Source of the DNA: Hyphomonadaceae bacterium
GTDB taxonomy: Bacteria > Pseudomonadota > Alphaproteobacteria > Caulobacterales > Aquidulcibacteraceae
Assembly: GCA_019753175.1 (NCBI GenBank)
Contig: JAIELK010000020.1
Coordinates: forward strand, 1 to 64,000
Direction of reading: 5' to 3'
DNA length: 64,000 nucleotides
The notes beneath the pieces were generated by a model that was not told the DNA's origin, ran no database searches, and saw only the letters and a list, made by a program, of their open reading frames with translations. The position numbers and the translations under genes are program-made. Shown piece by piece: positions 5,706-13,872 of this stretch; positions within the stretch are counted from its first letter, which is position 1, and each line of letters opens with the position of its first letter.

Positions 5706-7295
5706 ATGGCGGACGTTTTCATCTCCTACGCAAGCGAGGATCGCGACCGCGTGCGCCCCTTGGCCGAGGCGCTGATCCAGCGCGGATTCAACGTTTGGTG
5801 GGATCGGGCCCTGGCCGCGGGCGAGGATTACGCCGCCACCATCGAGCGCGAACTCCGCGCCGCCAAGGCGGTGATCGTGGTTTGGACCCGCAGCTCGGTG
5901 GCCTCGACCTTCGTGCGCGACGAGGCAGGCCGCGCGCGCGATGAGGGCAGGCTTGTTCCGGTGATGCTTGACAAGGTCGAGTTTCCGCTCGGCTTCGGCG
6001 CGTTTCAGGCCGAGGACTTCACGCGCTGGAACGGCGGATCGAACGCTCCACAACTGCAGCTTCTCGAAGAGGTGCTGCGCGCCAAGCTCTCGGGGCGCGC
6101 GGTCGACAGCAGCGCCATCGAACGCCGGCGGCGCCGGCTTGGCGCGCGCATCCGTCTGGTCTCGTTGCTTACAGTGATTGCGCTGGTTGTCGGCATCGCC
6201 GCGGGCGGACGATATCTGTTCAATCCGCCCGAGCCGCAAACCGATCTGCGCGCTGAATTGTTGCGCCTGCTGGAAGAAGGCACGCTCACGCCGGAGCAGG
6301 CGATTCAGCTGGCGGAAATCCTCGAAGCCGGCGCTTTGGGCGAGACGCAGGTGGCAGAGTCCGCGCCGATGGCTTCTCCGGGCGCACCCATCGACTCGCG
6401 CGTGGCGGAAGAGGGGCCGGCATGGTCCGGCGATACTCGGCCGGTCGTTGTGTCTGCATCCGTCTTTGACGAAGCGGCGCGCGCCACTTATCGCGAAGCG
6501 GCCCGCGCGCTGCTGCAGCACCCAGACGCATCGGTTCGGCGAGCCGCGCTGCAGATGTCGAGCCCAGAGACGCGCGACAGCGCGATGCAGACGCTCTGGT
6601 CCTATGCGCAGAGCAATCCGAACGATCCGCTCCGCGATGAAATTTACCTGCTTTGCGGTGCGGTTGGTGAGGCCAACGATAATCCGTTGGGTCAACGGGC
6701 GCTGGAAGTCGCGGCGAACCTTGCGCCGGGTGACGCCGATGTTTGGCGCATGCTTGCCCGCTCTTATGACCGTACCGATCGCGATCAGGACGCACAGGCC
6801 GCCGTGCTGGTGAGCCAGGCCGCCGAGGCGCAGAGCCAAGGTCAACCTCAGATCGCCGAGCAACGTCTGCAGGAAGCGTTGCCCAATCTGAGTGCGGCCG
6901 AGCTGCGCGCGCCGGTGGCGTCCGAACTCGGACAGCTTGCCGAAGCGCGCGGCGACTGGGATTCGGCCAGCGCGCGGTTCGCGCAAGCCTATACGCTGCG
7001 GGAGCAAACCGCGGCGGAGACGCCGACATCGGCCGCGGCCGACGTACTCGAAGCGGATGCACAGCAGTTGGTGATCGCGCTCGACCGCTCTGGCCGCACG
7101 CGCGAAGCTTGCGAAAGACTACGGCAAGCGCAGGCGGCGCACGACGTGGCGGCGCCGGATCAGGATTTGCTCGAACGCTGCCGCCGTCTGTTCCGCACCC
7201 AATTGCGCGATCGCGTCGAGGTCGCTCCGCAACTACGCTTGCGGCGCGAGGCAATCCAGCAGACGCCCGAGCAGGACGTCGCGCCCACGCCATGA
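5706..7295 (+). CDS. TIR domain protein with one transmembrane segment and helical-repeat C-terminal region
   Basis: The 529-residue protein starts with a TIR domain (about residues 1-125): VFISYASEDRDRVRPLA, FNVWWDRALAAGEDY, and SSVASTFVRDEAGRA, where the glutamate sits at the position used as catalytic residue in NAD-cleaving TIR proteins. A single hydrophobic helix (about 150-168) follows a basic stretch, which would anchor the TIR domain in the cytoplasm. The remainder is Ala/Glu-rich and helical and looks TPR-like (about 250-500), probably periplasmic. TIR domains can signal, bind partners or hydrolyse NAD; the activity here is not shown by sequence alone. It has no recognisable defence partners nearby; flanking genes are metabolic and rRNA methylation genes. 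Confidence 0.85.
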   Translation: MADVFISYASEDRDRVRPLAEALIQRGFNVWWDRALAAGEDYAATIERELRAAKAVIVVWTRSSVASTFVRDEAGRARDEGRLVPVMLDKVEFPLGFGAFQAEDFTRWNGGSNAPQLQLLEEVLRAKLSGRAVDSSAIERRRRRLGARIRLVSLLTVIALVVGIAAGGRYLFNPPEPQTDLRAELLRLLEEGTLTPEQAIQLAEILEAGALGETQVAESAPMASPGAPIDSRVAEEGPAWSGDTRPVVVSASVFDEAARATYREAARALLQHPDASVRRAALQMSSPETRDSAMQTLWSYAQSNPNDPLRDEIYLLCGAVGEANDNPLGQRALEVAANLAPGDADVWRMLARSYDRTDRDQDAQAAVLVSQAAEAQSQGQPQIAEQRLQEALPNLSAAELRAPVASELGQLAEARGDWDSASARFAQAYTLREQTAAETPTSAAADVLEADAQQLVIALDRSGRTREACERLRQAQAAHDVAAPDQDLLERCRRLFRTQLRDRVEVAPQLRLRREAIQQTPEQDVAPTP

Positions 7296-12646: not shown

Positions 12647-13385
12647 TTAGCTTGAGACGGCGGCCTCCGGCGCTGGTGTTTCCGACATTTCCTGGCGCGC
12701 TGTGCGAACGTGCAGGCCGCTTGCGGCCGGAGCGTTCGTGCAGCGCGCTTCAAGCTTCGCCGCGAACGCGGCCGGCGTCAAATAGCCGAGGCTCGAATGC
12801 GGGCGCACGGTGTTGTAGTGGCGCCGCCAGGCCTCGATCACGACCTTCGCTTCGGCGCGCGAGCGGAACCATTCCATCGACAGGCACTCGTCGCGGAACT
12901 TGCCGTTGAAGCTCTCGGTCGCGCCGTTGTCCGAGCGCAAGCGACTCGCGGGTCCATTCGTCGGTCACCGTCAGGCACTTGATCTGGCGCCCGTCGGCGC
13001 AGGTGTCGAACACGAAGTCGTAGCTCCACACCTCGTTGGCGTTCGTGGGGGCCTGCGGCCGAGGTCGCGCCGCGGAAACCCTTCTGCGCAGGCGCTTTTT
13101 CGGAACCTGCAGCCGCGCCGTGCGCCACAGCCGGTGCGCCCGCGAGAAGCTCATCGCAAAACCGTCCCGGCGCAGGAAGATCGCGATCCGCCGGTAGCCG
13201 TAGCGCGGGTAGTGCGCGGCCAGCGTGCGCATCTTCGCGAGCGCCGGCGCATCCTTCGCCGGCTGTTTCGGCCGATACGTCAGCGCCGAACGCGCGACTT
13301 TCAGAAGCGTGCAGGCCCGCCGTCGCGACAGGCCTTTGCCTGCCGCGAACAGAACGGCGGCGCGCCGCGCCGGCACGCTCACCAT
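12647..13385 (-). pseudogene. IS3-family transposase OrfB, internally deleted and frameshifted
   Basis: The first part (13385 down to about 12945) reads as a normal OrfB: HTH_21-like HYPRYGYRRIAIFLRR, then NEVWSYDFVFDTCADGR with the first catalytic aspartate, and TVTDEWTRESLA. The frame then changes, and LRSDNG followed by ATESFNGKFRDECL and HYNTVRPHSSLGYL continue in another frame to 12647. In intact relatives about 30 codons lie between TRESLA and the RSDNG block and about 25 more between DNG and ESFNG; both stretches are missing here. The protein therefore cannot be a working DDE integrase. Deletion sizes are estimated from family memory. Confidence 0.88.
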
Positions 13386-13642
13386 TTTTTTGCGGCGATC
13401 TCCTTCATCACGTCGATCTCGAGGTCGCGCTCGGCGACCAGCTTCTTCAGCTTGGCGTTTTCCGCTTCGAGCTGGCGCAGCCGGCGCACATCATCGATGC
13501 CGAACGCCCCGAAGCGCTTCCTCCAAGTGTAGATCGCCTGCTCGGAGACGCCTTGTCGTTTCGCGACCGCAGCGACCGAATCCCGCTCGGCCTCCCGCAG
13601 CATCGCCACGATCTGCTCGTCCGTGAACCGCGACTTTCTCAT
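13379..13642 (-). CDS. IS3-family transposase OrfA (helix-turn-helix subunit)
   Basis: This 87-residue protein starts MRKSRFTDEQIVAMLREAE, with a helix-turn-helix (AKRQGVSEQAIYTWRKRFG) and a leucine-zipper coiled coil (LRQLEAENAKLKKLVAERDLEI), as expected for IS3-family OrfA. It overlaps orfB at an A7 run (13385-13391) where ribosomes may slip -1 to make OrfAB. OrfA itself looks intact. Because OrfB is broken, the element should not transpose by itself, but OrfA could still bind the terminal repeats. Confidence 0.88.
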   Translation of the reverse strand: MRKSRFTDEQIVAMLREAERDSVAAVAKRQGVSEQAIYTWRKRFGAFGIDDVRRLRQLEAENAKLKKLVAERDLEIDVMKEIAAKKW

Positions 13643-13872
13643 TGCCCGCCTCCGATTCGGGAGGCAGCCTCTCAAGCAATCCTTGGCCCGAAATTACCGG
13701 GGCAGGTCAGCCGGAGAGGCGTAGTCTGCCACTTTGACTATTCGGAGCAACCTCGATGGACTAAGAGCTACCGGCAAAACCTACCGAAGGCAAAAGGTGC
13801 AAAAGCGTGACGCGCACCCATTTCCCAGCTTCCCCGTAGCGCCCCCAACCGCCCCCGCGCTAATCTCCCTCC

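What the first reader, a model, noticed from the sequence alone, without database searches (positions are those of the whole stretch)
5706..7295. Membrane-anchored TIR protein with a long helical-repeat tail
TIR is at the N terminus with the putative catalytic glutamate (VRDEAGRA), followed by one transmembrane helix and about 350 residues of TPR-like helices likely on the other side of the membrane. That layout would let the tail sense an envelope signal and the TIR domain act inside. No known defence gene is next to it, so it may be a signalling or stress protein.
Basis: partly seen in the sequence, partly recalled or inferred. Interest (0 to 1): 0.5.

Follow-up and report, generated by a model that had tools for sequence, protein, structure and literature searches.

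The report
Inherited membrane receptor-like TIR protein
This bacterial gene encodes a membrane protein with an immune-type TIR domain that probably lies inside the cell and a helical, sensor-like arm that probably lies outside; related bacteria mostly keep it at one chromosomal spot among many other TIR genes, so it looks like a resident signalling protein rather than a mobile anti-virus gene, but its activity and signal are untested.

Summary
Confirmed: 5706-7295 (+) is a 529-aa ORF with an N-terminal TIR domain (Pfam TIR_2, 9.4e-23; the model matches AbTir at Z 14.6, but also non-enzymatic TIRs), one transmembrane (TM) helix (149-167), and a distal part made of a SHOCT-like hairpin, a disordered linker and a divergent TPR-type superhelix. 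E73 aligns with the AbTir catalytic glutamate and is kept in 29 of 29 aligned orthologues. The position of the AbTir tryptophan that promotes cADPR cyclisation is Phe in 24 of 29.

The TIR side of the TM helix is the more basic side in 29 of 29. Cysteines 469 and 492 are both present (25) or both absent (3) in 28 of 29, as a periplasmic disulfide would be. The gene is in 34 of 60 genomes of its family and within 2.2 kb of rsmD in 29 of those 34, so it is mostly inherited in place, with some losses. It lies in a housekeeping neighbourhood.

It belongs to a TIR-rich lineage: median 16 TIR_2 matches per genome in the genus, median 0 in a class sample, although some genomes in two other families of the order are also rich.

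Best reading: a clustering-activated membrane TIR NADase with a periplasmic TPR arm. Catalysis, ligand and output are untested. A new variant of a known layout (TIR-TM-TPR).

The parts
5706..7295 (+). Whole gene: TIR-TM-SHOCT-like-TPR protein, 529 aa, with stop codon
5706..6095 (+). TIR domain, residues 1-130, predicted cytoplasmic
   Evidence: Pfam TIR_2 9.4e-23; model aligns to AbTir 7uxu, Z 14.6, rmsd 2.2 over 122 residues
5922..5924 (+). Codon of E73, aligned with the catalytic glutamate of AbTir
   Evidence: 29 of 29 orthologues; 24 of 24 in a wider TIR set; alignment to AbTir, 7uxr and PdTIR
5910..5912 (+). Codon of F69, at the place of AbTir W204
   Evidence: F in 24, W in 5 of 29; role of W204 from passages of PMC10937652
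6096..6146 (+). Basic juxtamembrane stretch, residues 131-147
   Evidence: more K/R on this side of the TM helix than on the other in 29 of 29
6150..6206 (+). Transmembrane helix, residues 149-167
   Evidence: hydropathy; long helix 135-169 in the model
6249..6329 (+). SHOCT-like helical hairpin, residues 182-208
   Evidence: Pfam SHOCT-like_DUF2089-C, below cut-off; mean pairwise identity 0.74 for residues 180-210
6336..6455 (+). Disordered, fast-changing linker, about residues 211-250
   Evidence: pLDDT mostly under 60; mean pairwise identity 0.31 for 211-252
6456..7193 (+). Divergent TPR-type superhelix, about residues 251-496, predicted periplasmic
   Evidence: tail model mean pLDDT 89.3, pTM 0.84; generic TPR matches
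7110..7112 (+). Codon of C469, proposed disulfide partner
   Evidence: with C492 both present in 25, both absent in 3, one alone in 1 of 29
7179..7181 (+). Codon of C492, proposed disulfide partner
   Evidence: as for C469

Best explanation
A single-pass inner-membrane protein inherited mostly in place. The N-terminal TIR domain lies in the cytoplasm; the SHOCT-like hairpin and TPR superhelix lie in the periplasm and bind a protein or envelope component. Binding brings several copies together, the TIR domains assemble, and the assembly cleaves NAD+ or an NAD-containing substrate with E73 as catalytic residue, giving a local signal or a metabolic brake. Shown here: the domains, the single TM segment, conservation of E73, gene position. 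Inferred with support: topology and disulfide. Inferred only: clustering, NAD+ cleavage, ligand, output. Because F69 stands where AbTir has W204, the product may be mostly linear rather than cyclic ADP-ribose.
For: TIR_2 9.4e-23. Profile search puts bacterial NADase TIRs first among solved structures, 8e-12 to 3e-11, with E73 on their Glu. E73 in 29 of 29, K/R bias in 29 of 29. Cysteine pair both present or both absent in 28 of 29. Strongest constraint on the TIR (dN/dS 0.12), the SHOCT-like hairpin (0.15) and the tail (0.25), and weakest on the linker (0.62). Confident models. Present in 34 of 60 family genomes, next to rsmD in 29 of 34.
Against: No activity was tested. Over 70% of all TIR domains keep this glutamate and it does not always predict activity (PMC7075850, passages). 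By fold the best match is Hydra TRR-2 (Z 17.2), and the adaptor TIRs MAL (15.1) and MyD88 (14.2) score like AbTir (14.6), so the fold does not choose between enzyme and adaptor. F replaces W at position 69 in most orthologues. The tail matches only generic TPR folds (best Z 11.2, within the range given as common for helical models), so nothing points to a ligand. Six of 30 genus genomes lack it, so it is dispensable. Two of the three orthologues without the cysteine pair have a gap at position 492.
Confidence: 0.42

Rival explanations
1. Non-catalytic scaffold: the cytoplasmic TIR only binds other TIR proteins of the cell and the TPR arm organises envelope proteins; E73 is kept for structure or interaction.
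For: Fold equally close to adaptor TIRs. PMC7075850 suggests the glutamate has a role beyond catalysis (passage). Many TIR partners are at hand: 16 TIR_2 matches in this genome.
Against: Profile matches rank NADase TIRs first, and the pocket residues examined at S7, W32, R34, G39, D72 and E73 are invariant in 29 of 29. Which of these are pocket residues here is inferred.
Confidence: 0.28
2. Resident anti-phage protein: a membrane TIR that senses envelope damage during infection and depletes NAD+ (abortive infection).
For: TIR parts of several PADLOC models match (best 6.4e-13); TIR NADases are common defence effectors.
Against: All PADLOC matches cover the TIR part only. Mostly fixed position among housekeeping genes. 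No full-length match in 50,697 phage or 72,556 plasmid records (own or very near records may be left out). Purifying selection on the tail.
Confidence: 0.17
3. The tail is cytoplasmic too: the TM helix only tethers the protein, or both parts face the same compartment by another topology.
For: One TM helix and no cleavable signal; generic TPR proteins are often cytoplasmic.
Against: K/R bias in 29 of 29. In 28 of 29 the stretch before the TM helix has no cysteine (L063 has two), while the distal part has a paired set. A single TM helix puts the two ends on opposite sides.
Confidence: 0.05

Closest known systems
Bacterial TIR NADases (AbTir, PdTIR and the 7uxr TIR)
   Same: TIR fold; E73 aligns with the Glu (AbTir E208, passage of PMC10022894); sequence match 8e-12 to 3e-11 with a 24-row TIR profile
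   Different: Here the TIR is N-terminal, before a TM helix and a periplasmic-type tail; F stands at the W204 place in 24 of 29. AbTir as an enzyme is known; this one is not.
TIR-TM-TPR proteins elsewhere in the order
   Same: L092 (694 aa) and L094 (810 aa): TIR_2, one hydrophobic segment near 153-171, TPR repeats
   Different: They carry a further region before the TPRs that I recall as TolB-like (no Pfam hit at E up to 0.001) and have no SHOCT-like hit; their tails are not similar to this one. Only 2 of 5 fetched relatives were read.
Group 6 TIR-TPR proteins of Actinobacteria (PMC7075850)
   Same: N-terminal TIR with C-terminal TPRs (passage)
   Different: Over 700 aa, W15/W18 pattern and other boxes; here V16 and P18 stand at residue numbers 16 and 18 (numbering not matched)
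Animal Toll-like receptors
   Same: Works-like comparison only: single-span, cytoplasmic TIR, repeat arm outside; best fold match is a Hydra Toll-related TIR (Z 17.2)
   Different: Opposite order (TIR N-terminal), TPR-type rather than leucine-rich repeats, no sequence relation of the arm; no ligand known
PDB 9m0n, 'Tetratricopeptide repeat protein', 824 aa
   Same: TIR at its N terminus (profile match 1.3e-4, residues 1-90) in a protein named as TPR
   Different: Match covers only the TIR; not followed further

Membership tests
Pfam TIR_2 (TIR fold) | Profile match over curated cut-off | tested here: met
   81.4 bits against cut-off 28
TIR NADase (AbTir-like) | Glutamate at the catalytic place | tested here: met
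   E73, 29 of 29; aligned with AbTir Glu
TIR NADase (AbTir-like) | Glutamate-dependent NAD+ cleavage | not testable with these tools
   needs protein
Cyclising bacterial TIR (AbTir-like) | Tryptophan four residues before the glutamate | tested here: not met
   F69 in the window; W in 5 of 29 orthologues. W204A reduced but did not abolish cyclisation in AbTir (passage)
Thoeris ThsB | Match to ThsB family models | tested here: inconclusive
   Pfam ThsB_TIR 12.4 bits, under its cut-off 21.2; PADLOC ThsB models 6.1e-5 to 0.024, TIR part only
Thoeris ThsB | Adjacent ThsA effector gene | tested here: not met
   no ThsA model among PADLOC matches of 10 neighbours
SHOCT-like domain (PF22746) | Profile match over curated cut-off | tested here: not met
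   19.7 bits against 27 in the window; 20 of 29 orthologues reach E 0.01, best 5.9e-6, so SHOCT-like only
TPR superfamily (tail) | TPR helical-hairpin superhelix | tested here: inconclusive
   helix-hairpin model with pLDDT over 90; Pfam TPR hits under cut-off; Foldseek best E 2.3e-3 and best Z 11.2
Mobile defence-island gene | Variable, mobile, near defence genes | tested here: not met
   within 2.2 kb of rsmD in 29 of 34 holders; neighbours housekeeping

The most novel reading that the evidence does not exclude
This lineage may carry a bacterial counterpart of a receptor repertoire: in this genome 9 of 15 TIR proteins have a hydrophobic TM-like segment by a simple hydropathy scan, with varied non-TIR parts (TPR-type, MORN, DUF805 and others), and the present gene is the stably inherited member with a periplasmic arm. 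The cytoplasmic TIRs of different receptors would co-assemble and use NAD+ as the signal in everyday envelope surveillance rather than in phage defence.
Probability: 0.12. Interest if true: 0.8.

Novelty: new variant of a known kind. Interest (0 to 1): 0.42.

Why it matters
Most bacterial TIR work concerns defence islands. A TIR protein kept under purifying selection at one chromosomal place across a family, with a likely periplasmic arm, offers a way to ask whether TIR NAD+ signalling has a resident, non-defence role. The F/W difference at position 69 makes a product prediction that one assay can test.

Tried and rejected
Operon partner: rejected. The gap to the upstream E2 gene is 140 bases here but up to about 4 kb elsewhere with other genes between; no sigma-70-like promoter or plausible terminator was found at the gene, which says little. 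Mobile element: no full-length match in phages or plasmids. A specific relative of the tail: a search of 385 class genomes found only the own genome and one weak match, 4.4e-5, plus a second weak match in the own genome, 1.2e-5; fold searches gave generic TPR matches. Gene-tree test: the TIR and rsmD trees of 22 loci share 6 of 19 splits (label shuffles: mean 0.19, maximum 2 of 500 runs) and path lengths correlate at 0.84; this fits inheritance in place, but 13 splits differ, so it is support and not proof. TIR expansion as unique to this family: rejected, because, which scored at most 14 candidates a genome, 9 genomes of two other families also reach 14. Literature on TIR proteins in Hyphomonadaceae: 0 papers held; other searches were made; the library holds only open-licence papers.

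Full report
OBSERVATION. The ORF is at the stated place: 5706-7295 (+), 529 aa. TIR_2 matches residues 4-108 at 9.4e-23. A hydrophobic segment lies at 149-167. AlphaFold2 with 29 aligned sequences gave mean pLDDT 84.1 and pTM 0.61 for the whole protein, and 89.3 and 0.84 for residues 178-529 alone. The distal part is a hairpin (SHOCT-like, below the Pfam cut-off), a disordered linker and a superhelix of helical hairpins.

ORTHOLOGUES. A genome-contig search gave 17 loci, of which 15 are related beyond the TIR and 2 (L032, L033) only in the TIR. A search of 299 genomes of the order found matches in 107 at E up to 1e-20, most of them TIR only. In the family, 34 of 60 genomes have a match at E up to 1e-60, in 6 of 14 genera; in the genus, 24 of 30 have the tail. 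After removing identical rows, the broken L030 and the TIR-only L032, 29 sequences were aligned. Identity to the window protein runs from 47 to 77%.

CATALYTIC PLACE. E73 is invariant in 29 of 29 and in 24 of 24 of a wider set: 17 orthologues, 2 other TIR-TM-TPR proteins and 5 of the other 14 TIR proteins of this genome. In profile alignments it stands on the Glu of AbTir, the 7uxr TIR and PdTIR. PMC10022894 (passages) names AbTir E208 as catalytic; [quoted passage not shown] The place of W204 is F69 here, F in 24 and W in 5 of 29. Against over-reading: PMC7075850 (passages) says the Glu is kept in over 70% of TIR domains and does not necessarily go with reported activity. By structure the best match is Hydra TRR-2 (Z 17.2); AbTir is at 14.6 and the adaptors MAL and MyD88 at 15.1 and 14.2.

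TOPOLOGY. Lys/Arg are more frequent on the TIR side of the TM helix in 29 of 29 (mean 5.6 against 1.6 in 18 residues). The stretch before the TM helix has no cysteine in 28 of 29 (L063 has two). C469 and C492 are both present in 25, both absent in 3 and one alone in 1; in two of the three without them, position 492 is a gap. C317 is present in 27 of 29. A disulfide outside the cytoplasm would explain the pair; it is an inference.

SELECTION. Median pairwise dN/dS: TIR 0.12, SHOCT-like 0.15, tail 0.25, TM 0.28, juxtamembrane 0.46, C-terminal end 0.47, linker 0.62. Synonymous sites are near saturation, so the order matters more than the values.

POSITION. Of 34 holders, 29 have rsmD within 2.2 kb of the 3' end, convergent in 28 and on the same strand in one (L062). 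Of the other five, L017 (G147) has no rsmD within 8 kb; G241, G251 and G062 have none within the 1.5 kb held; the G172 contig ends about 200 bases beyond. Upstream, the E2 gene of a 2-oxoacid dehydrogenase operon was seen in 14 loci, window included, but not within 8 kb in L017, L022, L028 and L029. NCBIfam names RsmD, the TerC-like gene (YjbE family), a pseudouridine synthase and TadA over cut-off; the E1/E2 and amino-acid dehydrogenase genes match only below cut-off, so those labels are mine. In G107, which lacks the gene, E2 and rsmD are present with other genes between and no TIR match at E 1e-3: a true absence. G187 and G271 also show rsmD without the gene; in G197 and G291 too little sequence lies beyond rsmD to judge the site.

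DEFENCE. PADLOC matches of the protein cover the TIR part only. Of 10 neighbours, 7 have no match at 1e-3; RsmD matches a methyltransferase-bearing model (mad2, 3.8e-18), TadA a deaminase model (2.4e-5) and a ParB-like gene PD-Lambda-5_A (7.2e-5). Plasmids: 12 records, TIR only, none covering 80%. Phages: 1 record, TIR only.

CONTEXT. This genome has 16 TIR_2 matches, 14 over cut-off, in 15 proteins. By hydropathy 9 of 15 have a segment that may span the membrane. The genus median is 16 (8-25) in 30 genomes; in a class sample the other 189 genomes have a median of 0 and a maximum of 7. Within the family two genera (14 genomes) have 0-2. The richness is not unique to this family: in the order search, capped at 14 scored candidates a genome, 9 genomes of families f2 and f5 also reach 14. 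TIR-TM-TPR proteins exist outside the family: L092 and L094; three further fetched relatives (L091, L093, L095) gave no ORF with the pattern used and were not pursued.

READING. The evidence makes a single-pass TIR protein with a periplasmic arm likely, and inheritance mostly in place clear. That it cleaves NAD+ on clustering is the most likely mechanism but is untested; an adaptor role is the main rival. SHOCT adds little: its describers suggested oligomerisation or nucleic-acid binding and their first experiments did not support oligomerisation (PMC3581485, abstract and passages). No paper on this protein or on TIR proteins of Hyphomonadaceae was found in the held library (related searches are), which is not the whole literature.

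Noticed in passing
L009:1372-2355 (own genome, G000:C7 near 62002): A TIR domain fused to a pterin-4a-carbinolamine dehydratase domain (Pterin_4a 8.6e-19, TIR_2 3.9e-15).
   Followed up: no
L006:571-1848 (-) (own genome, G000:C6 near 59025): A TIR domain fused to a ParA/MinD-type ATPase (AAA_31 1.2e-26).
   Followed up: no
L005:1492-3258 and L008 (own genome, C16 and C21): TIR proteins with MORN repeats after a hydrophobic segment (L005) and with 11 Sel1 repeats (L008).
   Followed up: no
L001 and L002 (own genome, G000:C16:12117-13357): Two TIR genes next to each other, one TIR-DUF805 and one TIR-TM; pairs of neighbouring TIR genes are also visible in many genus genomes.
   Followed up: no
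L030 / L061 (CP096134.1): The orthologue is split by a broken frame in this genome; its completeness is given as 92%, so assembly error or real decay cannot be told apart.
   Followed up: no
L024, L025, L027: About 2 kb between the TIR gene and rsmD; in L024 and L025, read, it holds one secreted amidohydrolase-like gene of about 680 aa.
   Followed up: partly
window 12647-13675 (-): ORFs that look like an IS3-type transposase pair (recalled motifs, no call), about 5 kb from the TIR gene.
   Followed up: no
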